Shown one piece after another: positions 4,211-18,308 of a DNA stretch of 64,000 bases (positions are counted from its first letter, which is position 1; the number at the start of each line of letters is the position of its first letter). The stretch covers positions 434,001 through 498,000 of the forward strand of contig JACGCN010000027.1 in the NCBI GenBank assembly GCA_014905825.1, given 5' to 3'. This DNA is from Lyophyllum atratum. Its lineage: Eukaryota > Basidiomycota > Agaricomycetes > Agaricales > Lyophyllaceae. Both the position numbers and the translations under genes were made by a program. The notes beneath the pieces were generated by a model that was not told where the DNA came from, did not search any database, and saw nothing but the letters and a program-made list of their open reading frames with translations.

Positions 4211-4616
4211 CAATCCTGGACCCAGGTTTCTTATCCAATCTTACCTAACCGCAACGTTGTTCAACCATGTCCGTTGCTCTTCGTCTTCCCCCTACAGCGC
4301 GACCTCTTTCCGCCGTCTTCTATCCATTCAACATTGCCACAGTATGTATCCTTTTTTTTGCTTCTCTGGGTGAGTGGATCCAACTATCCAAGGACCTCGG
4401 TACAGTACTTATTCCAATTTGATCTGGCAGCAGCCCTGGCCTCGTCACTGCAGCTGGTCCTGCGCGGTATGACGCCCCGCTTTGCGCCCGATAAAGACAA
4501 CTGCTAACAAAGTGAGTCATTACATGATGAATTATTCTTCTGGACTAACCTCGCCTAGCTATGGATCCCGTTTATTTCATTTATTACAGGAGAATTGTCA
4601 TCCTCAAGATCTTCCC

Positions 4617-5126
4617 ATGTCGCAGCGTTCGAACGGCGGCTCCACGCTCACTTGCACGGACTGTGGGCGAGACAATGTCCAAAAGCTCACCTGCAACTCA
4701 GACACCAACGGCAATGCTGGGCGCCTCTACGCCAGCTGCTCGAACACGAAATCCGATGGGACGAAGTGCAGTTTTTTCCGGTGGTGTTCACCCAAGGCGA
4801 CCCCCGTTTCATCCCCAAGTCCCTCAATGAACACAACACTCCCCGTTTCCGCCGTCCTGAACGCTGCGTCGTCCGCTCTGTCCCGGCCTGGTTGTTCGAA
4901 GCCCGAGTGTGCGTTGATTCGCGTTGCTGCTGAATGCAGACGAGTCATGTGCAGGGGCCACTGCATCGCAGCTGGCGGCTGTTCTGCGAAAGGCCACGTA
5001 GCAACAAGTACCAGCGACAACGGCAACACCAGGGCTATAGCTTCGACAAGTCGGTCACCGTCTCGCTCTCTGTCACCGCCTCCACCTGGTCAAGCTGCGC
5101 CACCAACATTCAGCCATTACTGCTAG
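4617..5126 (+). CDS. GRF-like zinc-finger protein with a second cysteine/histidine cluster
   Basis: From the ATG at 4617 the frame gives 169 residues. Residues 12-46 read LTCTDCGRD...GRLYASCSNTK...KCSFFRW, matching the GRF zinc-finger plan (C-x2-C, then G-R-x-Y/F-x-x-C, then C-x-F-F-x-W). A second cluster (CSKPECALIRVAAECRRVMCR then HCIAAGGCSAKGH, about residues 81-115) resembles a Cys/His module I recall from fungal transposon-linked proteins. The tail is serine/proline-rich and ends HYC. GRF fingers bind single-stranded nucleic acid in other proteins; a role here is inference. An upstream exon ending at the acceptor near 4590 is possible. The short tail suggests the gene may be truncated. 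Confidence 0.6.
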   Translation: MSQRSNGGSTLTCTDCGRDNVQKLTCNSDTNGNAGRLYASCSNTKSDGTKCSFFRWCSPKATPVSSPSPSMNTTLPVSAVLNAASSALSRPGCSKPECALIRVAAECRRVMCRGHCIAAGGCSAKGHVATSTSDNGNTRAIASTSRSPSRSLSPPPPGQAAPPTFSHYC

Positions 5127-5439
5127 GATTCTATATCAATGCTAGTTAGTTGACAGAACATGCCATACATCCGGTTTGCCTGTGCCCAACCTTCCTAAAG
5201 CAGAAGGGACTTCTGTCAGATCATTCTGGCATCTCGGGAGGATTTGATGGTGGCATCTCGGCCTGTCAGATCCATCAGGAGAGCGGGGACACAGCCGAAA
5301 TAGGCTCAGAAATGATGGGGGGAGCGGGTGCATCAATAGACGTTGTGAGCGGGCAGACGGCGGCGCTGGTGCGTCGGGATTACCAAAATAAGAAAAAAAA
5401 CATAATGTATATTTTTTTTAAAAATACACGGGCCCTAGT
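5127..5439. other. Intergenic, 3' flank of the KDZ transposase gene
   Basis: No coding potential or recognisable terminal inverted repeat is visible. A purine-rich and poly-T stretch at about 5385-5425 (a run of A on the plus strand followed by T) may serve 3'-end formation for the minus-strand transposase. Confidence 0.4.
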
Positions 5440-8400
5440 TTACTCCTCCTCGTCGTCATACAGCCCACTGTCTCCGCATCCTAGCCCATCCGCGCCGTCG
5501 TCGGCGCGTTCGTCCTCGTCATCCTCGTCGTCCTCGTCGTCATCGTCGTCATCGTCCTCAGCAGCTGTGCCCGTGGATCCTGCGAGCGCCGAAGCGAGTC
5601 CCTCCTGCAGCTCACCCTCTCCTTCCTCGAGCGGGGCCCTGAACGCGTGACGGAAGCTGAGCGACATGCTTTCATGCAAGGTGGCTTGGCCGAGTGCGTA
5701 TGCCTGTAGGCCTTCCGCCAATTCCTTCGACGGCACGTCACGAGAGGCCGTGCGGCTTCGCCACCAAACCCCCTTCCACTGCAGGAACGCAAGTGACCGC
5801 CGCATTTCCTCCCGTAGCAGCTGAACCTCCTCAGACGCACGATTCGCGCGGGCGCGACTCTTTGCCCACTCGGAGCAAAGCAAGGCGTCGTCGTCGAGGC
5901 TGCTGGCACTGGTTGCCATTCTCCAGATCCACGAGAGCTCGCGGCGAGTTGCGCCCGTTCCGTCACGGCGCGTTCGTGCTTCCTGAAGCAGGGAGATTCC
6001 CTGGCCAGAGGTGGAGGCTTGCAGCTCTCCATCGGAGTCCTCGTCCTCATCTTCCATGCCAACATCCTCCCCCTGGTCTCTACCGCTATCGTTGCCGTCT
6101 GTACCCTCCTGAGTCTGGGGCAGGGCAGGCGCGTCATCCTCCAGGGTTCCAGGGCGACCAGGACCCCTCTGTAGACGGCTGGGGTCGGTGTATGCTCGGA
6201 TATCCCCGTCCTCCAAGGGGCGCAGCACCTGCTCCCAATCACCGGCCCCAGAAAGGAGCAGGTTTCGACTCCGCGCCGTACGGTACTTCTGCGCGTAAGC
6301 GCGGGCACGCTCGTGGACCCTGTCGATCATTGTGCGAGAGCGGGTGGAGGCTCGCTGGCCACGGATGTTGGCGTTGCGGAACTGCACCATCCGAGTCTTG
6401 AGGCGCAGGACGTGTCGAATACCCTCGAGCGCATCATAGCACTGAGCGACGCGGAGTTTGGCCTCCATCGCCGGCAGGCCTGCGATGCAAACGTTTTCCC
6501 GACGATCTTGTGGAAGTTGCGAGGGGAGCCATAGGTCAGCTTGTTCCGGGTGTTCGTTGGAGTCGGCGGGCGGCAGACCAAGGCGAGCTTGGTCATGTAG
6601 GAACTGCAGGAGGCCGGGCATGTAGACGGCGCGCAGCAGCTCCCAGTTCCTTAGTTTAGTGCGTAATGAGTTGCGTAGTTCAGCCAGGGTGGCGCCCTGG
6701 TGGGAGGTGTGGGGTTGGATGCCTGTTATCGCGAGCTTACGAACACGGCGCCTGAATATTGAATTAAGTGGGCTGGTAGCAGTATGAGGGGGGGGGAAAG
6801 CTTACTGGGAGTCTTCGAGGTCCAATCCAAGGACCAGGAAAGCGGAGGCGCTCGTTTCATGCAGAGCCGCCCCCCCAGTGGATACCCGCTCCTTCTCTTC
6901 TTCAGCAAGCTCCTTCCGAGCTTCAGCCTCGGAAATGCCTGCCGTAGCTAGTCAGCGAACGCGTGGCGTGGAGGATGGAAGCGCTACGTACAGACAATTT
7001 CGGAAACCAAGGGGCTCGGAGCCTTCCTCGGGTACGCTGTGTCTTCTTCCCAAGCGACGCAGATTGCCTGCCATGCTACGACTTTGGTAGGCGGCATCGA
7101 GGATGTGAAGCCCCGATGGCCTTCGACTTGTATGTTTCGCAGACGCACCGCAGCCTTGTACCGGCGCATCAAGGTCTTGCCTGCGTGGAATAGTTAGCGT
7201 GCAGTCAGGAAGGAAAGCCACCCCACTTACCCATTGAGCAGTATTTGAGCCAGTTCCAGAAGCCGAAGTGGTCGTCGAGGGCATCGTGCCTCGACCCCGG
7301 CCCCATGGTCTTCGTGGAGTTCCCTAGCGCATTATGCCCAGCCCATATACGCTCTGGACACTCGCCATCAGTAAGTCCGGCGCCGAGGATGTGGTTGAAG
7401 GAGAGCTGGTCGTGCGTCTCCTTGTGAGCAGGCTCATGGAGTTTCGGGATGGCCGGGATAACGCGGGAGCGGGGGCTGAGGTGGAGGCCGTCGGGCCAAT
7501 CTTCCATGCGTAGGTAGAAGTTCTTGATCCATTGGCAAGCGATGTCGTAGGATACCAGGAGAATGGCGAACGAAAAGAATCGCAGAGCGCTGGCGAAGAC
7601 AAAGTCCATGTTTGGGTATCTACAGCCCAGGCACTGGTCAGCACGGAGCAGCATGTGAGGCAAATAAACGCACCGCTCGCCCTTGATCAGATCTCCCACC
7701 CCACACGGGAGTATCATCTCGCCTCTTGAGCAGGAAACGGCAGCGACTCCCGTGTATCGCAGGCCTTTCGAAAACTTCGTGTTGGCCTTGGACAGGGCCG
7801 CGAACCCGACGCAGGTGCTGATCTGTGGTACAGTCAGAGTGAAGTGCAGCGAGGAGAAGCGTGGTAACTCACGTCTCCTTGAGAAGCCTTACTCAGAACA
7901 TATTTCTCGTATGGCTCACGGCGGACCATGTATGAAAGACCCGTGCCTAGCCCTGGATCCTGAGAATAGGAAGAAACCAGCTGCTGCTTGAGGCGGAAGT
8001 TCGCATCCATTGCGACCATCGTTGCGTAGAGGAATCTGTCAAATTCGTCAGGTTTCTGCTCGCATACAAAGGGTAAGTCAACGCACGCGGTCTCCTTTGG
8101 CGCCTTCTCCCAGCCTTCGGGAAGGTTCTTGCCTGGGTGAGGACAGGTCAGGCAAGGCACCGCCAGCTCCCCCTCCTCCGTGCCCGCCGCGCCAGACGGA
8201 TCATGCCCCCTACCACCCCGCTTCAGCATAACGAGGTGCCGCCACTGAAGGCACATCCTCTGCAGCGGGCGATACCTTGACTTTGGGACGCAGAGGCCAG
8301 TATTGTCGGTGAGCTTCTCGAGCGTGCGGTAGAAGTCGTACGTGGAGGCCTTGGTAGTGAGCCCAAGTAGGTGTAGCTGGCGGAGAAGCTGGAAGGAAGC

Positions 8401-9311
8401 GCACGTCTTGACGGTGAGTTGACTTGCGGGAAAGAGGCCACGGCGCAGGAGTTGAATATGACGCGGGAGCGGGCGGCACCCGCAATACTGCAGTGCGACG
8501 TCATGGATCCCGTTCGTGTGCAAGACGCGAAATTGGACGTGGCAGGGTTCGGGGTTCGGGCACTGCATGCTGCTGTGATTGAGCTGGACCTTCAGACCGA
8601 GGTCTTTGAGGGATGTCTTGACGAAATGCGTGCCTGTCCAGCGCTAAAGCGGTTGGGTCAGCGAGCCCTCGGTAAAACCTAGATGAAACGGCGTACCTCT
8701 ACCCGGTGGAAAGGTGCCCGGCGATGACGCTTGCAGCAACAACTAGGGCAAATGAGGTCGGCTCCAAAGCAGTCCATGCATCGAACCTCGGCGTCAGCGG
8801 GGTTCAACGTCTTGCGGGCTACACAGTCAACGCAGTGAGGCTGACTTCGTGCGTCTCCACGCCCTTCCCAGCGTATGAGCTCGTCAAGATAACTCTCGCG
8901 ATGTCGTTCCTTCCAGAAAACAGTCGGGCGCGTCTGTCAAAGCATAAGCTCAAGGTGCATAAATGACTGGGAGTGTAAGTTACTCACAGCAATCTTGGTA
9001 CGCTTTTTCTTCTTAGGCTGCACCTTGTGAGTAGGGGGGTCCTCCATGACAGGTGCGTCGAGTGCTTCGTCGTACCAGTCCCCGTTAGGATCCAACGCGA
9101 GCTCCATGTCATCTTCAGGCTCCCAACGCGAGCCCACTAGCCAAGAGGTACGGCCGCGCTGAGGGGACCGCTGGCTCTCCACGACGCGGGATGAGTTTCC
9201 GACTCTTCTGGATTGAGCATCGCGTGAATGGATGATTTCAAAGTCATCCTCCAGCACTACACGGTCGTGGTAAGCGGCCTTCGAGAGGTCAGGACGTTTT
9301 CGTTTCAGCAT
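5440..9311 (-). CDS. KDZ transposase with CxC2 cysteine cluster, 8 exons, apparently intact (1167 aa)
   Basis: Exons (minus) 9311-8988, 8933-8697, 8643-7873, 7822-7674, 7619-7231, 7180-6992, 6938-6806 and 6751-5440 all join in frame through GT-AG introns: 3504 nt with one terminal stop. A basic N-terminus (KKKKR) precedes the cysteine cluster (CVDCVARK, CMDCFGADLICPSCCCKRH, then CPNPEPCHVQ and QYCGCRPLP). The RNase-H-fold core holds AMDANFRLK (about residue 410), SYDIACQW (about 517) and ECPERIWAGHNALGNSTK (about 585-600); I take the two Asp and the Glu as the catalytic set. Then follow DDHFGFWNWLKY and a helical region with REEMRRSLAFLQWKGVWW. The C-terminus is poly-acidic. KDZ enzymes cut and paste DNA in the nucleus. 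Intron 4 (7673-7620) is 54 nt with no stop, so it also reads through in frame. It is high in G+C. Exon limits are by eye but every phase agrees. Confidence 0.9.
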
Positions 9312-9564
9312 AGACGGTGGCACTTGGAAGTTCCTGTCACCTGACGCACGTGACTGTTTTCGGTTACACTTTTGCAACCCGTTTTGGTTGCTCACCACTT
9401 GCAACTCACCGCGCCGGTCGCGTCTCTCATCGTGCCTGGTAAGTCAAGGAGGTCGCGTCGCGCCCCAACTGAGACTTGAGCCCGGGACTCTATTGGGGCT
9501 GGCCGCGGCCCACCACTCCTTTTAGCTCCATGTGCTGATGCCCTCTTACCTTGCCAGGTTCATC
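9312..9564. promoter_or_regulatory. Divergent promoter region between transposase and dioxygenase
   Basis: 253 bp separate the two start codons, which point away from each other, so both promoters must lie here or overlap the genes. I see no clear TATA box; the region is GC-rich. Shared control of the two genes is inference from geometry. Confidence 0.4.
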
Positions 9565-10763
9565 ATGTCTACGTTACAAGGTACAGGTCGCCAGGTGAGT
9601 TGGCAACAGGTTCGACCCCACCGCACCTCACAGTTGTCTCGTTGCAGACACGCTCAGGAGCCACTTACGCCGCGTGGGAGGGCATCCTGCCTACTGACAC
9701 ATTCTTCTCGTTCGAAGACGCTCTCCTTCAGAGCATCTACGACGAACGGGACGAGCTCGAACACCTATTCTCTGACTCTCCTCTTTCATCAGCGCCAACC
9801 TCTCGAGCCGCATCACCAGCACCTGCTGACTTGCCCTCCTCCTCAGCACCAACACCTCGTGACGCACCACCCGCCCATCTCTCCCCACCACCGCCCCTGT
9901 CCTCAGCAGCCCCAAGCACTGGCAAATCCGCATGCAAGAAGCGCAGAGAGAAAAACCAGGGACATCAGCGGCGGAAGCGCCAGCGCCAGGCTGACGCAGG
10001 CGATGGCACGGTCAACACGGTGAGGCCGGGTGTGCGCTCGAAATTCGTGGGCTCATCAGCGCCTGTGCGAACCAACGTCCAGCCTGAGGGCCTCCGCGTT
10101 GCCTCGAGCGGCTTCATCGGCGTAAAGTCCACTAGGCCACCCCGGGTACTTAGCCTTTCACAGCTGCTCAAACTCGCAAACCTCCGCCGCGTTCCTTGGC
10201 TCGGAAAGGCGCCGAAGCCCCTTCTGGATCGCACCGAGCGTGTCGTTGGGCTTCTCGCTGGGTATGCAAAGTGTATGGACCAGCTCTGCGCCCACGACCC
10301 CGACCTGAAGCGTAACTGGCCACGCAGCGTGTTCGCGGCTGCCGTATTCAACCTGGGCCCGCAGACGGTCTGCTACCGCCATAAGGACTTCGCGAACTTA
10401 CCGTACGGGTGGTGCGCCATCACAGCCCTGGGCTCCTTCGACCCGCAGCTCGGCGGCCACATAGTCCTCTGGCAACTCGGACTCGTAGTCGAGTTTCCCC
10501 CTGGATCCACGATACTCATCCCATCAGCGGTAATCGAGCACTCTAATGCACCCGTCCGGGCCCACGAGACTCGGTACTCTTTTACACAGTACAGCGCAGG
10601 TGGCTTGTTTCGGTGGGCAGAGCACGGGATGAAGTCTGATAAGGAGTTTTTCCAAGGTTTATCGGAGGAGGACTTCAACCACGCCGCTACGAAGTCTGAG
10701 CAACGCTGGGTGCATGGACTCTCTCTTTTCTCGACCCTCGCGGAATTGAAGACATTTACGTAG
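9565..10763 (+). CDS. Fungal TET/JBP-family 2OG-Fe(II) dioxygenase, 2 exons, apparently intact (381 aa)
   Basis: Exon 1 is 9565-9594 (MSTLQGTGRQ). A 53-nt GT-AG intron follows and exon 2 is 9648-10763. Residues 1-150 are low-complexity Ser/Pro/Ala with a basic patch (KKRREKN...RRKRQRQ) that could carry nuclear localisation. The double-stranded beta-helix core contains HKDFANLPYGWCAIT, with H255 and D257 as the iron-binding HxD. GGHIVLWQLGLVVEFPPGS follows, then IEHSN with the distal iron ligand H308, and ETRYSFTQYSAGGLFRW with R319 as the 2-oxoglutarate-binding arginine. All key residues are present. TET/JBP enzymes oxidise the methyl group of 5-methylcytosine or thymine in DNA; fungal members occur next to KDZ transposons. 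Which base this one acts on cannot be read from sequence. Confidence 0.9.
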
Positions 10764-10861
10764 CACTAGTAAAGTAGAAGTAGCCCACACTTGAAATATA
10801 GACCGTGTTTTTCGTCGCTCATTGCACTTGTGAGTAAGAGATATATATTCCTGTAATAGGG

Positions 10862-10892
10862 TAGTGATTTTCATTTCAAATGAAAATCACTA
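10862..10892. repeat. 31-bp near-perfect inverted repeat (hairpin)
   Basis: TAGTGATTTTCATTT is followed by one C and its exact reverse complement: two 15-bp arms around a single base. It lies 100 bp past the dioxygenase stop. Related motifs recur at 11425-11550, 12192 and 12322. Confidence 0.85.
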
Positions 10893-11424
10893 TGTTAAAT
10901 CTATTCACATTTCTATACACTATCCACCGTGAAGTCAGAGGATATATTGCAGCAAACGTATGATTGAAGCACCTACATCAATTTGAGATACTTCGGGGGA
11001 GGTACGGAGGAAGTCGAGAAACAGGCCGTTTCGAATATCTGTTATCCATGCATGTATATCTACCTACATATACGAGCCTTTGAACTAAGTCAGTCCTACC
11101 GTGTATTATTCTTGCGTCTTATTCAAAGTTGCTTACATTGCTTGCTAAACCTATATTCCGTAGCCCAGCAACCCAGCGGGACGGCACTCGAACTCCTACG
11201 CAGTATAGAACGCTATGTACTTTCCGTGATGATGTTCATTATCTGAAGCTTTCTAGATCGGGGAAAAGCAAAATTACTGTATTGGGCAATTTATTCATCA
11301 AAGATCGATCAACCGTTTCGAGTCTTGTCGTGAATTTCCACTTATGAACATAATGCCTGTGCCTGATTACTCATTGATCAAACCAATCCTCATGAAAGTT
11401 CCTGATCTGATAGTCTCGCCCGTC

Positions 11425-11550
11425 GTGACTTTCATGAAGGTGGTGAAAGTCATCATATCACTACATATATTGTTGAATCATCATATTCCCATGTGCGTTC
11501 TAAGACGTCGTGATTTTCATCCAGGTACTGAAAGTCATCATATTACTGCG
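11425..11550. repeat. Two hairpins with GTGACTTTCAT / ATGAAAGTCA arms
   Basis: The first hairpin, near 11427-11460, has CGTGACTTTCAT, a short loop and GGTGAAAGTCATCATATCAC. About 82 bp further on a second copy has CGTGATTTTCAT...ACTGAAAGTCATCATATTAC. The sequence 10893-11623 otherwise holds no gene I can support. Confidence 0.7.
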
Positions 11551-11623
11551 TCATACACGTAACGCACAAGGTGGTTACATAGCGAACAACGGCGTAGCGA
11601 AAAAGGGGGCCTTGGGCAGCCGT

Positions 11624-12053
11624 CTACTCTTGCGAAGCTTCTAGCCTCGCCATTTCCTCCGCCTCTTCCTCAGCAGTAGCATCCTCCTCCCTCTCCGCCT
11701 TCTGTCGACGCCTACTTACCCTTTCAGCAATGACAATTATTTTATGAGAGAAACGGTATCACCTATATTCCGACGCATTCTCGCGGAGAACTCGGCGGTT
11801 GCGCTGACGATAACGAGCCGCGTTGATGTTGTGCTGAGCTCTAGCGGCGTCGCGTTCTTCGTCCGTCATCTGGGTCTTCCGGGACGCTGCGCGCTCACGG
11901 TTGCGTTTCTGCAGCCAAGCTTGGTTACTGTAAGAATGTCAAGGGGAACGCTGGCAGAATGTAGGGAGGTACGTACGCTGCATAGTAGGCCTTGGACTTG
12001 GCCCGCGTACTGAGGTCCTTGCGCTCGATCTCCGTTGACAAGTGGTGTCCCAT
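11624..12053 (-). CDS. Small basic-region orphan protein, 3 exons (112 aa)
   Basis: Exons 12053-11977, 11927-11763 and 11720-11624 give 339 nt in frame. The sequence is MGHHLSTEIERKDLSTRAKSKAYYA..., then NQAWLQKRNRERAASRKTQ and ARAQHNINAARYRQRNRRELREN, ending in a glutamate-rich coiled-coil-like tail. The NRERAA-RYRQRNRR pattern resembles a bZIP basic region without a zipper and parallels the gene at 2208-2754. The last intron's acceptor (GAAAG) is weak, so the third exon is less certain. The interval 12054-12594 upstream has two copies of the GTGACTTT motif but no gene. Confidence 0.5.
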
Positions 12054-12594
12054 ACCGTCTTGGAGCGGGGGGGTGTTCGCAAGGTAGGCGGTCGTGTCTT
12101 GACGGTGCGCATGTAATATGTAAATATCACCACGATCTGGAGAGTCCCAGGAGAGCGGAGGACTACTGCTTTACGCGATGCCCTGAAAAAAAACGTGGTG
12201 ACTTTCGAGTTCTGGAAGCACTTACCCGTGCACTGCCGAACAGTATAGTATTGAGTCCAGGCTAACGACCGTGCGACGTACTGGGCCCAATATCACTTCC
12301 CTGCATTTGCTCCAGAGAGTTAGGCCGTGGTGACTTTTCAGACAGCCACGAAACTCACCATGTCCTGCATTTTCTTCAGGGAGGGTTAGACCCGGCGTTC
12401 ACATTGGCTTGGCTTCTTATGGGGGCATTATATGTTTTAGTGGCCAACGTGGCTGAGATGCATTGTGTATGTTTGTAAACGTAGCGCGTAAAGACAGGGG
12501 TGACATGTATGTAGGCAAAGACGCCGCGAATCCCTGAGGGCTGATCCCATTAGTGTGTGAGTAATATAATGATGAAATTACTTACAGAAGGGCC

Positions 12595-13761
12595 CTACTT
12601 GCCCAAAAATACACACTCAACTTGGTGGGAAAGGGTCTGCATCGAAGGGGACGGCGGCACCGCCGTGGAAGAGGTGAGGTCGGACTCTGAGGAAAGCTCA
12701 TCCTCGCTGTCTGAGAAGTCAGACGCGGGCACTCGAGGGGGAACGGGCAGGGGGGGCGGCTGGCTAATGACTACCGTATTCTGTCCCTTTCCCTCGATGA
12801 CCTCCAGATAGCCGTCCCGGAAGGCGTCCCGGTAGCAGTCGTATGCCCGGTCGAAGCTTACGAAGGATTCGTAAACGGGCTTGACGACGTCCTTAATCCA
12901 GGGCGTGATTTGCGTCCTAATGACAGCTGTCAGTAGATAGATCAGGACTAAGGAAGTAGCCGGCCGCGTACCACGTTACAAAAATCCCCACTTTGCGACC
13001 CTTCGCGATCACATAATACTTCTTCGGCGCCATCCCACGGAGGTCCTGAAACGTCGAAGGGTCCGGGAACCGGATCTCGTCAAGGGCAGTGTGCCTCTGA
13101 GGCATGGGTGATACCTTTGCCTGCTTCTGAGGCGTCCGAAAAGGGGGTGGTCGTGCCTTCGCCTGCGACCTAGAAGGGGTGCTGGGGACGGAGGCTGTTC
13201 GCGAGCGCCGAGCGGTCAAAGTAGGGGCCGTAACGATGGTCGTCGTGCACGTCGTGGTGATTGTCACCCCCTGCCCATCTAATGAACAGGTAATTAGGTC
13301 GATCTGACAATAAACGTGGGCAACTTACCAGCTAGTGACAAAACGGGCTGGCGAGAGACGGTGGGCAACGGGGTCCGGACCACAGGGGACGGGGGGCAGG
13401 TAGGACGTCGATTTGAGCCAGAGGCTTGGTATCCACTGGCAGGCGATGCGGGGGGCGTCTGCGGGGGATCTATGACGAATGTTACCTAGATACGTTTGAC
13501 CAAGACTAAACGTGTACTCACCGTGCCATGCATTGGGCCGTGCGTACCGTCGCAGTAAACTAGCGGAACGTCGACGGCGTGCTGCGAGCTCGTTAGCCTG
13601 GATGATGAACTGTGGTATGTTACTTACCTGTGTGAGCAGTAGTCGCTGTGGGGGACACGGGACGGGTATACAAACGCCCTGCAGCGCAGGAGGTCAGCGA
13701 GAAATCGTGGTAGGGAGGGGAGCCTACCTCGAGAAGTGAGACGCGGTTCGAAGTTGGCCAT
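12595..13761 (-). CDS. Protein with RNase H1-type N-terminal (viroplasmin-like) domain
   Basis: The clear exons (minus) are 13278-12972 and 12916-12595, joined by a 55-nt intron inside the domain: MAPKKYYVIAKGRKVGIFVTW continues as TQITPWIKDVVKPVYESFVSFDRAYDCYRDAF. The YYV-x-KGR-x-GIF-x-xW plan with a following V-x-P-x-Y/F-x-SF core is the RNase H1 N-terminal / caulimovirus VI domain, which binds RNA-DNA hybrids or dsRNA. No catalytic RNase H domain follows. A Thr/Pro-rich linker precedes the domain and an acidic Ser/Glu tail (about 12780-12650) follows. A further exon ends at 13329; the first exons up to an ATG at 13761 are plausible but their phases do not all agree, so the 5' end is uncertain. 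Confidence 0.6.
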
Positions 13762-14098
13762 GTCACTGATTTGATCGTGTCAGCGGCTTTATATTTATAT
13801 ATGTGTGTGGCATAACAACCGCAACCCTTGACCAGCCTAGACCTAGAGCAGCAGTGGCGCCTTCAATATGGACCGTGGCACCTCATATCGACATGTCAAT
13901 CACCCTGCATCCTACTCTGCGGCGGCGGTACTACTCAAATTTTGTCGCTGGATTTCTCTCTTAAACGCCGTGCTTCTCTCGTACCATGGGCTAGCTCTGA
14001 CCAGTATCGAGGGCTTTCAACAGCTTCGGAATTCAGAACCTACAGTAAGTTATTATTCCTATCCTTTGATGTCAGGTTACTGATTCGTATACCCTAGG

Positions 14099-16524
14099 AT
14101 GGTCAACCCTGGCGCGTTCCAAGGAATGCGAAAAACATTTCTCATTTCCCAGAAGCCGAGATACTCCGTGGCCGTGGCTGAGAACCATGTCGCCGACACC
14201 CTTGCCGACATCCAGCGCTCCTTTTTCAAACGCTTCTCGCTGGACCTCCCCCCGGATCAAGACCCCACCTCAGAAGAAATGGGTGCCGTTGACGACAGCA
14301 TCCCGGACCCCGAACCTCTCGCTCCGGACGCAGATGTCCTTTCAGCTGAGGACTACACGGCAGCCATGGAACTGTTTGATCGACAACGGACCCTTCTGAT
14401 CTTTCGCAAAGGGGTGAGCTGCCACGTTTTTCCCTGCCTTTTCTCATCAAACTAATGTCGTCCGCAGCAAATTAAACGTTGGATGGCGTACCAGTACTGG
14501 AAGGACAGGGAGGAGACCGCAAAGGGCTCAGAGGTGCAAGACGCGTTCCTCACGCTCCTACAGCGACTCACCGGCAAGGGCCTACCAAAACCGCGCCGCA
14601 TCACCGCCTCCAATCACTGGCAACAGACGCAGGAGTCCAAGTTACTCGTCGATGCAGAGGTCACCCGCCGGCTCCAATTTTCCACCAAGGCGAAAGAGCG
14701 TGCTGGAATTCGTTCGAAGGTCGTCTCCGACCTTTTCAAGGCGCTCCCGGAGGCAGAAAGGGCGGAATGGGAGGACTCGTCTGTGCACCAGCATGAGCTG
14801 GCGCTAGCAGAGTGGGAGGAAAAGACGTCAGGGCCGCCTTCCACCGCTCCTGAAGACCGTCAGAAGTACGTTACACTACTTTCTACACCTTAATCTATCT
14901 AACCTGCCTTCTGACAGATATATCCAAGCCCTCATACCCTTCATGCAGCGTATCCTCACGCTGGTGACCGAGGTCACGGACATGAAGACCACGTTCTTGG
15001 CTGGAGGTCCTGAACCCGCTGACGCCGGCCGTCTGAACGTCATCAGGTACGAAGTTTCCCATAGCATCTCCCAACGAAGCCTCATCGCTGGTTCAGCGTT
15101 CATGCAGGACACTGCCCAGGCAACATCCGTATGAACTTCGGCGTGTCAGAACGCGAGGCCTACAAGAAGCAGGTCTTACCGGTCTTCGGTCAGTTTCTGA
15201 AGAAATGCTATAGTACGTTTTTCTTCTCTCATCTCTGTTCTTTTGTCTGATTCCTTGCTCCAGCTATCGAAGACTGTCGCGCTCGAGCGCTACCTGTAGA
15301 CACCGTCTCCTTGGCCGCATCTTTCGAGGAGCACGCTGCTTACGCGACCGTGGACTCCTTGGGGTCCTTAGGCGCTCCGTTCCCTCCCCTGCTCTCCCTC
15401 CCCTCTCTTGTCGACCCCCCCCCCCCGCTTCCCGAATGCCCGCTGGCCCGACGACACCGCATGCCGCCCCGTGGGATGACCCGACCGTGGCCTCAGGGCT
15501 CTTCCGCTTTCCTGAACCTGGAGCGTCACCCCCACCTCTTCGCGTGCCCCTATCGCGCCCCCAGACGCCCGCAACTCCTCAGCTTGCAAGTGACGAACTT
15601 GCCCGTGCTCTCCGCCCTTCGGCGTCTCCCATGCCCTCGGCCCCGCCCTCGCTTTGCCCGTCACCCCTGTGCTCCCCACACTCGCTGCCTGGCCACTCTC
15701 TCCGACCTTCAGTGCCTCGCACCCCGCAAGCGCGACCCGACGTCTTCTCAGGAGGCCCACCATTTACTCAGGTGCCCCCCACGACACCCCCGTCCCCACC
15801 TATGCCGTCGCCTGTCCTCAGGATTGGTACGAACACCCCAGCTCGAAAACGCCGGAACGACGATACCATGGACGGCCCCTCCAAGCGCACGAAGCCGCTG
15901 ACGGCACCATCGACCCCCACGCCCCTGCCCACGCCAGTTGCCCCCTCTTCTCCAGCCCCGGCGTCTCCACCTCACCCTCGCCCTCGCCCTCGCCCTCGCC
16001 CTCACCCTCGTGTCCCTGCTCCTCCTGTGCCGTCCGCTCCCCCACTACCCGCTCCTCCTGCTCCCCCTGCGTTGTCCACGACGACGGTCCCCCCTGGCGC
16101 TCCGAAGTGGTTTAAGCTCGCGCTGACCATGTTCAACTCGGACACAGCCCTCGGCAAAGAATGGAACGCACTCGTCTGTTCATGGGCCGCGTTTGAACTC
16201 AGGGAGAACTACGCGGGCACCGTCAAATTCCCCTGCAAGGACCGCCCGGAGTTCGTGTCGGGATGGATCAAACGAGCGCGCGCCATCAGCTACCGCCCGA
16301 TTAATAGCAGCAACGTCGAGGACACCGAGACTAGCATGACTGCATGGTGGAGCACAGTTCCTCCGGCCCAGGTAGCGTGCTCTGGGGTCAACGGCGTGCT
16401 GAGCCTGCTCGCAGGCCTCTTTATGTGGGGTGTAGCTATTTCGGACGCGCCGGCGGCGCATCGCACCGCCTGGGTAAAACTGCTCGCTGACGTCCACGTA
16501 GCCTTTTTAGATACACTTTTATAA
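14099..16524 (+). pseudogene. Large TE-associated orphan protein, 5 exons, frameshifted in a C12 run
   Basis: Exons 14099-14413, 14468-14865, 14918-15046, 15097-15212 and 15264-16524 splice in frame. The start reads MVNPGAFQGMRKTFL, then a DIQRRF-like segment, then a helical domain QIKRWMAYQYWKDRE...RAGIRSKVVSDLFKALPEAERAEWED that recalls an HMG-like fold. YIQALIPFMQRIL...TTFLAGGPEP and NFGVSEREAYKKQVLPVFGQFLKKCY follow, then a long proline-rich linker. A C-terminal domain (PKWFKLALTMFNSD...NGVLSLLAGLFMWGV, about 16100-16450) closes it. I recall this architecture as a very abundant basidiomycete family of unknown function. The frame breaks at the 12-C run 15415-15426: residues before it are in one frame and everything after is in the -1 frame. 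This may be mutation, a homopolymer sequencing error or programmed slippage. Confidence 0.6.
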
Positions 16525-16601
16525 TCTAATTTCTCCTTTTAGCTAATACTTTAATAAATCTGCATTCCCATCCTCTCACTAAATCAGTGTGCTCAGGAAG
16601 G

Positions 16602-16760
16602 TAAATTCTTATTTTCAGTGGGGAGGCGGGGCAGAGGCCGCACGAGGTGCGGGAGGGGTGGCAGCGGGGTGGGGCGGGAGTAAATTTTTATTTTCAGTAG
16701 GGAGGGCGGGGCAGAGGCCGCACGAGGTGCGGGAAGGGGGGCAGCGGGGTGGGGCGGGAC
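16602..16760 (+). repeat. Tandem duplication of a 79-80 bp G-rich unit
   Basis: Two copies, 16602-16680 and 16681-16760, each starting TAAATT.TTATTTTCAG and continuing with a G-rich stretch containing GGCAGAGGCCGCACGAGGTG. They differ at only a few positions. Confidence 0.9.
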
Positions 16761-16954
16761 GGCGCCCTACCGAGGTTTGATGCTGAGGGTGCCTGTATGA
16801 TGCGCATTTGACGCGCTGCCAATGTGCCGTGATGTGCCGAAAAGCCGTCGTGATGGCCGGCTGATGGGAAATATGACAGAGGACCAGAATAGGTCGCCAG
16901 TCAGTGGACATGCCTGATGTATCACTTAATCTGTCAACTGACAGTAAGTGATGT

Positions 16955-18308
16955 ATGCTCCTAGCCACTACAGGTGCAACATTGGTCCAGACAGCCACTA
17001 CATCCGGCTCACGCGATGCGTTCGCTCATCCTCGCTACGCCTCACAGATGCCTCCGGTGTTCACTCAACAATACGCCCAGGAACAGGTCATCGAAGAACA
17101 CAGGAGGGCTGCCGATGCTGAGCGTCTGGCCAATATTCAGCGTGCGAAGGATCACGTTATCGGTTATGGATGGGCCAAGGTACGTTCCGTTTTCCTTATC
17201 CTTGAACTGCATTGACAGGATCCTACAGAGTGGCGAGGCCCCCACCGTGTTCGAGTTTCAGGGTGGCTTCAAATACCCACATTTCGTGTTCACGCCCGAA
17301 TCACTCGCAGACCTCGACCTCTCATCCGCCGATGATGTTCCCCAATACTTCCACCTCTATAACCCTGTGATCTGTACATGGACGAAGGCGAAGCTAGGCC
17401 ATGTGGTGACATTGAAGGAGCCTGGTGACCGTATCTTTGTGAAGGGCCTTAATGTTAGCGACTGTGTAGATTTCGATACCCTTCTTGCCAACAGCTCGAA
17501 AAAGAATGGTGGCTTCCATATGCGGCATCACCTCACACAAGAACGGGCCCATGTTCGTGCAGCCTACGACAAGAAACACATATCAACGAAGCCTGCCGCT
17601 CGAACTCAGAAGGCCGCTGCCATTGAGCTTTCCTCTGATGACGAACACGATGAGTTTGCGGGGCATCGTGGAGAGGTCACGAAGCCTTTCATAGCACCTG
17701 CCCTCCGTGTCTGTGCAAAGTCTTTTGTGGCGTCTGCTCCCCGGCCTCGTGCAATCAAACGGGAGCCAGTTACGGGGACGCTAAGCTCTGATGATGAAGA
17801 ACTTCCGCTAGCCCGTTCCCTGCTCAGCTCTGATGAAGAAGAAATGCCGCTAGGCCCATTGATCCGCCCTTCCACGTCTGCCACTAGCTCCAAGCGCCGT
17901 CGCTCCCCCTCCCTATCGCCCTCCTCTAGTGGTTCATCATCACCACCTCATGGTGACAGCCTCAATGATCCCATTTTGGTTGACGGCGGCTCTGCTCCCA
18001 TTTGGCCGTCGGACTTTTACGTCGTTGATATTGTCCGAGGTTTTGCTAGGTGCGAAGCAGCTCGCCGTGCGAAGGGAGACATAAGGGACACCTTTTTCGA
18101 CCTCTTTGATACCCCTTTCGTGCGCTCTACATTCTATTACAACCGTCAGCGCTGGGAGCAAGCACCCCAGCGTGCTCGAGACAAGGCCATTGCTGCAAAA
18201 CACACAGAAGACGGCCGTTGGACTACCTTCGTTGCGTTGTTGCGCTCACACGACTCCAAGATTGCCCGAGGCAAGAAAATGACGAAGGTCAAGAAGGTGA
18301 AACTCTAG
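16955..18308 (+). CDS. KDZ-companion orphan protein, 2 exons (434 aa)
   Basis: Exon 16955-17179 ends in GYGWAK. A 49-nt intron leads to exon 17229-18308 starting SGEAPTVFEFQGGFKYPHFVFTP. The N-terminal half has a YPHFVF...LVxF-like region. The middle is acidic/serine-rich with basic patches (KRRRSPSLSPS). The C-terminus WPSDFYVVDIVRGFARCEAARRAKGD...TPFVRSTFYYNRQRWEQAPQRARDKAIAAKHTEDGRWTTFVAL is a conserved module that I recall from genes beside basidiomycete transposases. It is convergent with the CxC5/CxC6 transposase at 18451-20548, the two stops being 142 bp apart. A DNA-binding or accessory role is inference. Confidence 0.65.

What the first reader, a model, noticed from the sequence alone, without database searches (positions are those of the whole stretch)
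5440..10763. Head-to-head KDZ transposase and TET/JBP dioxygenase, both apparently intact
The transposase splices to 1168 codons over eight exons without a break. The dioxygenase keeps all four cofactor residues (H255, D257, H308, R319). In a window full of dead elements, two adjacent intact frames suggest current or recent selection. Linkage of TET/JBP genes to KDZ elements is established for basidiomycetes. What the oxygenase does for the element (removing host cytosine methylation from its own DNA, or marking its ends) is open. The 253-bp shared promoter implies co-expression.
Basis: partly seen in the sequence, partly recalled or inferred. Interest (0 to 1): 0.8.

Follow-up and report, generated by a model that had tools for sequence, protein, structure and literature searches.

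The report
Mushroom transposon carrying a damaged DNA-demethylase gene
This is a complete 11.9-kb mushroom jumping gene that carries, besides its transposase, a gene for a TET-like enzyme thought to strip silencing marks from DNA; in this copy that enzyme gene has lost about a fifth of its coding sequence, so it is probably dead, while close copies elsewhere in the genome still have the missing part.

The parts
5104..5110 (.). left copy of the 7-bp target-site duplication CAACATT
   Evidence: Identical to 16977-16983; single copy in the empty site on C61
5111..16976 (.). complete KDZ (Kyakuja-type) DNA transposon, 11,866 bp
   Evidence: Homology borders in C71 (both ends) and C119 (right end); TSD, TIR and empty site
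5111..5180 (+). left imperfect terminal inverted repeat, starts CA
   Evidence: Aligns with the reverse complement of the right end better than 1000 of 1000 single-base shuffles, in both the window and the C71 copy; the 329-bp left end is 92% identical to C71
16907..16976 (-). right imperfect terminal inverted repeat, ends TG
   Evidence: three right ends found in the genome: C72, C119, C71
16977..16983 (.). right copy of the 7-bp target-site duplication CAACATT
5440..9311 (-). KDZ transposase, exons 9311-8988, 8933-8697, 8643-7873, 7822-7674, 7619-7231, 7180-6992, 6938-6806, 6751-5440; 1167 aa
   Evidence: Pfam KDZ and CxC2; conserved acidic residues such as D400, D519, E583 kept
9312..9564 (.). 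253-bp intergenic region between the two start codons
   Evidence: promoter function not tested
9565..10763 (+). TET-like 2OG-Fe(II) dioxygenase gene, internally deleted copy, exons 9565-9594 and 9648-10763, 381 aa
   Evidence: full-length relatives
10262..10263 (.). deletion junction: 346 bp (49-bp intron plus 99 codons, measured against C119) absent here; the block is present in C119, C71 and C66
11644..12170 (-). possible small basic protein, an exon conserved in C71
   Evidence: 83% aa identity of the frame 11762-11938 to C71; no Pfam hit over cut-off for 11925-12170; model tentative
12598..13324 (-). possible protein with an RNase H1 N-terminal (Cauli_VI-like) segment, at least two exons
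   Evidence: 70-76% aa identity to C71; Pfam 0.0027, below cut-off; model tentative
14099..16521 (+). gene D: conserved partner protein with an HMG-box-like domain; first exons 14099-14413, 14468-14865, 14918-15046, 15097-15212

Best explanation
The feature is one complete insertion of a KDZ (Kyakuja-type) cut-and-paste DNA transposon in the mushroom Lyophyllum atratum. The transposase acts at the CA..TG ends and makes a 7-bp target duplication (ends, duplication and empty site are shown; catalysis is inferred). The element family also carries a TET-like dioxygenase and an HMG-box-like protein. The most likely role of the full-length dioxygenase is to oxidise 5-methylcytosine on the element's own DNA and so relieve host silencing (inferred from fold, pocket residues and selection). 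In the window copy the dioxygenase has lost 99 residues ahead of the HxD motif, with one strand and several helices of the predicted fold. It is most likely inactive, so this copy would depend on full-length enzyme made by other copies (inferred).
Against: No expression, methylation or enzyme data. Pfam Tet_JBP is below cut-off (C119 protein 18.0 bits against 34.9). Sequence searches of the PDB with the family profile and two members find no TET. The residue at R+8 that contacts the base in TET2, NgTet1 and CcTet (PMC11040006, passages) is Ala or Ser in 44 of 45. The register that puts Asn at D+3 is not the one hhalign prefers. The deletion could be an assembly error; reads were not available. 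CpG transitions make up 9 of the 26 polarised changes between the window and C119 copies, so the copies may still become methylated. 41 of 63 dioxygenase loci have no KDZ match within 6 kb, and linked loci include near-identical copies, so they are not independent events.
Confidence: 0.66

Rival explanations
1. The dioxygenase acts on another base or modification (6mA, thymine, or a hypermodification) or marks element ends, rather than removing 5mC.
For: TET-fold enzymes differ in substrate: CcTet also acts on 6mA and CMD1 glycerylates 5mC (PMC11040006, passages). This family lacks CcTet's D337 and the R+8 base contact.
Against: Asn at D+3 (44 of 45) is what TET2 has at N1387, described in PMC11040006 as H-bonding 5mC N4 and clashing with 6mA; but the register around HxD is ambiguous by one residue.
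Confidence: 0.22
2. The shortened window dioxygenase is a working or regulatory isoform: the loss was in frame and the rest is unchanged.
For: Frame kept; Fe and 2OG residues kept; only 1 nonsynonymous change against C119 in the 381 shared codons.
Against: The lost block has 6 of the 15 invariant columns and is covered by all 45 homologues aligned; in the model it spans one strand and several helices. The copy is too young (30 substitutions from C119 over the whole shared element) for its conservation to be informative, and an in-frame loss has a 1-in-3 chance.
Confidence: 0.05
3. The pair is a host gene pair, or a chance neighbourhood of two dead elements.
For: A stand-alone dioxygenase with a full ORF exists at C66, without a KDZ match within 15 kb.
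Against: Shared unit in three genomic copies, TSDs and an empty site; linkage in other mushrooms.
Confidence: 0.02

Closest known systems
TET+ Kyakuja DNA transposons of Agaricomycetes (Kojima 2025, PMC12730594; parts 1-4 of 7 of the text and the figure legends read)
   Same: KDZ transposase, a TET-like gene inside the element, 7-bp TSD, 5'-CA..TG-3' termini.
   Different: Has imperfect ~70-bp TIRs, whereas Kyakuja-1_LB and -2_LB are reported without TIRs. The dioxygenase lacks the CcTet Asp337 equivalent that the paper gives as conserved in AG-type enzymes of Kyakuja. It carries an HMG-box-like partner, which I did not see mentioned in the parts read.
CcTet of Coprinopsis cinerea (PDB 7vpn, 7w5p, 8jkk)
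   Different: 13% identity. CcTet G331 and D337 correspond to Asn and Cys in 44 of 45 each (ungapped register). No hit in sequence searches of the PDB, whereas two canonical TET domains of the same genome hit CcTet at 7.8e-10 and 1e-16.
Human TET2 and NgTet1
   Different: 12-14% identity; His at R+8 replaced by Ala or Ser in 44 of 45; not transposon-borne (recalled).
Zisupton transposons
   Same: Same KDZ transposase group.
   Different: Zisupton makes 8-bp TSDs (PMC12730594); here 7 bp.

Membership tests
KDZ transposase (Pfam PF18758) | KDZ catalytic domain over cut-off with CxC2 cluster | tested here: met
   KDZ 189 bits (cut-off 26.6), profile 1-217 of 217; CxC2 130.7 bits (cut-off 27)
KDZ transposase (Pfam PF18758) | conserved acidic residues | tested here: met
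   D400 118 of 118, D519 111 of 112, E583 118 of 118 among the 120 listed homologues with a letter at the column; which of them are catalytic was not tested
Kyakuja lineage | 7-bp TSD | tested here: met
   CAACATT (window) and CCGTGAG (C71); empty site
Kyakuja lineage | CA..TG termini | tested here: met
Kyakuja lineage | no TIRs (as reported for two Laccaria families) | tested here: not met
   Imperfect TIRs, 0 of 1000 shuffles reach the score. The paper reports this for two families and I do not take it as defining the lineage
Kyakuja lineage | phylogenetic position of the transposase | not tested
   Reference sequences (Data S1 of PMC12730594) not available here
TET/JBP dioxygenase | Pfam Tet_JBP over cut-off | tested here: not met
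   18.0 bits against 34.9 for the C119 protein, 13.8 for C66, 12.5 for the window copy; 9 of 45 family members reach E 0.01, best 9.5e-07; 2 of 120 listed homologues carry PF12851. The profile is not sensitive to this branch, so membership rests on fold
TET/JBP dioxygenase | fold closer to TETs than to other 2OG oxygenases | tested here: met
TET/JBP dioxygenase | Fe(II) triad and 2OG arginine | tested here: met
   45 of 45 each
TET/JBP dioxygenase | oxidation of 5mC | not testable with these tools
   Needs an assay
AG-type TET (Kojima 2025) | Asp at the CcTet D337 position | tested here: not met
   Cys in 44 of 45 in the ungapped register; Ala for P0002 in the register shifted by one
PE-type TET (Kojima 2025) | HxE instead of HxD | tested here: not met
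   HxD in 45 of 45
PU-type TET (Kojima 2025) | PU conserved residues (Figure 7) | not tested
   The figure is not held; the type is reported from Pucciniomycetes only
HMG-box protein (gene D) | HMG-box fold | tested here: inconclusive

The most novel reading that the evidence does not exclude
KDZ transposons of mushrooms carry a lineage of TET-fold dioxygenases separate from the three transposon-borne types named in 2025 (PU, AG, PE): HxD like TET, an Asn where TET2 has N1387, and neither CcTet's G331 nor its D337. It is nearly invisible to Pfam and co-travels with an HMG-box-like partner, forming a three-gene transposition and anti-silencing module.
Probability: 0.45. Interest if true: 0.66.

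Novelty: new variant of a known kind. Interest (0 to 1): 0.52.

Why it matters
If transposons carry their own erasers of DNA methylation, the arms race between silencing and mobile DNA has a direct enzymatic weapon. This genome offers a natural comparison: nearly identical copies with and without the dioxygenase core, one complete insertion and its empty site, and many related loci where 5mC can be mapped. The family also shows that a standard profile misses a branch of TET-fold enzymes, so counts of TETs in mushrooms may be too low, and it names a conserved HMG-box-like partner as a testable part of the module.

Tried and rejected
Rejected: an intact window dioxygenase; an element limited to 5440-10763; an intron explaining the whole 346 bp (only 49 bp of it is intron-like; the rest is conserved coding); chance neighbourhood (empty site).

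Led nowhere or weak: sequence search of the PDB with the dioxygenase family; searching papers for TET2 residue names (0 papers); a first paper search with general terms (20 of 7,012 listed, none on this subject by title); profile comparison with a canonical TET of the same genome (probability 4.5, E 0.009, register ambiguous by one). Pfam on two gene D homologues gave nothing at E 0.5, and Foldseek on gene D gave nothing under E 0.001. Iyer et al. 2014 is not held; what I know of it is through PMC12730594. The supplement of PMC12730594 (family list and sequences) could not be read, so whether its AG set contains relatives of this enzyme is open. With its N-terminal 319 aa as query, gene D was found in this genome only in the three element copies, so it is not shown to be a general KDZ companion here. 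The head-to-head layout is not general. Three right ends and two left ends of this family were found, so no swarm of short derivatives showed up with these queries. The 2 AF2 jobs went to the full-length dioxygenase family and gene D; the shortened window protein was not folded.
Full report
1. Observation. The KDZ gene reads on the minus strand from 9311 to 5440 in eight exons with GT-AG introns, giving 1167 aa and a stop. Residues 1-687 of the spliced protein match Pfam KDZ (1.2e-55, full profile) and CxC2 (3.1e-38). Several acidic positions conserved across the 120 listed homologues, among them D400, D519 and E583, are kept. The C71 copy has the same exon structure with no stop inside and a stop one codon further on. 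The dioxygenase starts at 9565, 253 bp from the KDZ start, has one short intron and ends at 10763. Its 381 aa include H255, D257, H308 and R319.

2. The dioxygenase of the window is not intact. The genome search found three other copies of this gene that match at the DNA level: C119 (99.5-99.7% identical to the window over the shared stretches), C71 and C66. All three have an extra block where the window jumps at 10262/10263. Against C119 the window lacks 346 bp: a 49-bp intron and 297 coding bases, that is 99 codons, so the frame stays open by a 1-in-3 chance. The other copies encode 480 aa (C119), 486 aa (C71, with a 1-bp difference that changes the last residues) and 459 aa (C66). In an alignment of 45 family members (chosen by me from the 120 listed of 434 found), 45 of 45 cover at least 86% of the block, and 6 of the 15 invariant columns lie in it (the script began the block one residue early, one search has it right). 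In the AF2 model of P0002, the public model of the C66 protein (mean pLDDT 92.2), the block is residues 141-239. It contains helix 145-164, strand 181-187, helices 204-213 and 216-232 and the start of helix 234-250. In CcTet the DNA-gripping loops also lie ahead of HxD (PMC11040006, passages); that the block includes their equivalents is inference. I conclude that the window protein is most likely inactive. Reads were not available, so an assembly error is not excluded.

3. The mobile unit. The C71 copy matches the window from 5111 to 16976, and the C119 copy shares the same right border. The window element starts CAGCC and ends AGGTG. It is flanked by CAACATT on both sides; the C71 copy is flanked by CCGTGAG on both sides. 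The two 70-bp ends are imperfect inverted repeats, scoring above 1000 of 1000 single-base shuffles in both copies. A search with the joined flanks found C61:837084-837583, 97% identical over all 500 bp, with one CAACATT and no element. The 11,866-bp unit therefore moved as one piece. Its left flank (4473-5126) encodes a GRF zinc-ribbon-like segment just below Pfam cut-off. Window and C119 copies differ by 30 substitutions, so movement was recent. C119 lacks everything left of window position 6143.

4. Selection. Between window and C71, dN/dS is 0.096 for KDZ (1164 codons), 0.104 for the N-part of gene D (319 codons) and 0.359 for its C-part (340 codons). For the dioxygenase it is 0.18 (C119-C71), 0.189 (C119-C66) and 0.191 (C71-C66). 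Both genes have been maintained over the history of the family. This says nothing about the window copy after its deletion.

5. Linkage. In this genome I clustered exon matches into 65 KDZ loci and 63 dioxygenase loci (query P0002). 22 of 63 dioxygenase loci lie within 6 kb of a KDZ locus, against about 1.2% expected at random positions: 18 tandem and 4 head-to-head (C72, C119, C71, C111). 41 of 63 do not. Counts are lower bounds by the tool's own statement, and near-identical copies are counted apart. Of 18 loci found with Pfam Tet_JBP, 0 are within 6 kb and 4 within 15 kb. For other fungi I used species, contig length and locus tags as names of place. Of 13 such pairs with ordered tags 12 lie within five genes; the 13th is 1,774 tags apart and is probably a chance match of lengths. 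13 of 35 gene D rows share a contig with a KDZ, and 6 of 35 with a dioxygenase. All three together occur on three contigs of Gymnopilus dilepis (within four tags), and on one contig each of Pholiota conissans (30 kb) and Galerina (267 kb, so closeness is not shown there).

8. Known or new. TET-carrying Kyakuja elements with 7-bp TSDs and CA..TG ends are published (PMC12730594, parts 1-4 of 7 and figure legends read). New here, as far as the listings and the parts read show: this element and its empty site, inverted repeats at its ends, a dioxygenase that fits neither the AG hallmark (Asp337) nor PE (HxE), and the HMG-box-like partner. The paper's supplement was not readable here, so the claim of a separate type is a proposal. 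The word Lyophyllum does not occur in its main text.

9. Mechanism in steps. Transposition of the whole unit: shown. Transposase chemistry: inferred from family. Expression of both genes: not tested. Oxidation of 5mC at the element: inferred. CpG is not depleted in the element (observed/expected 0.96; 4-kb bins of the window range 0.65-1.01), which fits protection, youth or coding constraint alike. Trans-complementation of the window copy by full-length enzyme: inferred.

Noticed in passing
C66:800364-801628 (L015, reverse strand): A stand-alone full-length dioxygenase ORF (459 aa) with no KDZ match within 15 kb and no right element end of this family found on that contig; dN/dS against C119 0.189. 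Could be a relict or a gene kept for its own sake.
   Followed up: partly
window 15415-15426: A poly-C run of 12 in gene D, 11 in C119, and a different sequence without a run in C71: slippage, sequencing error or an intron region.
   Followed up: partly
C46:630085, C130:257188, C63:138365: Three canonical TET domains, one of them (C46) tested against the PDB and hitting CcTet at 1e-16, each 9.9-13.5 kb head-to-head from a weak KDZ match (26-27 bits): possibly a second, AG-type element family in this genome.
   Followed up: no
window vs C119 element copies: Of 26 polarised substitutions (30 in all, 4 not polarised), 9 are transitions at CpG (7 of 15 on the C119 side, 2 of 11 on the window side), which hints at methylation-driven decay despite the dioxygenase gene.
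   Followed up: partly
element ends, window 5111-5439 and 16770-16976: The ends outside the gene models are 92% and 88% identical to C71 while 1-kb bins of the alignment are 72-87%: ends look constrained or converted.
   Followed up: no
window 4473-5126 and 16984 onwards: The element interrupts a frame with a GRF-zinc-ribbon-like segment; the empty site on C61 has a related frame running across the site.
   Followed up: partly
Gymnopilus dilepis P0162: A gene D homologue with helix-turn-helix and recombinase-type Pfam domains inside it, an apparent nested insertion or misprediction (domain names recalled from accession numbers).
   Followed up: no
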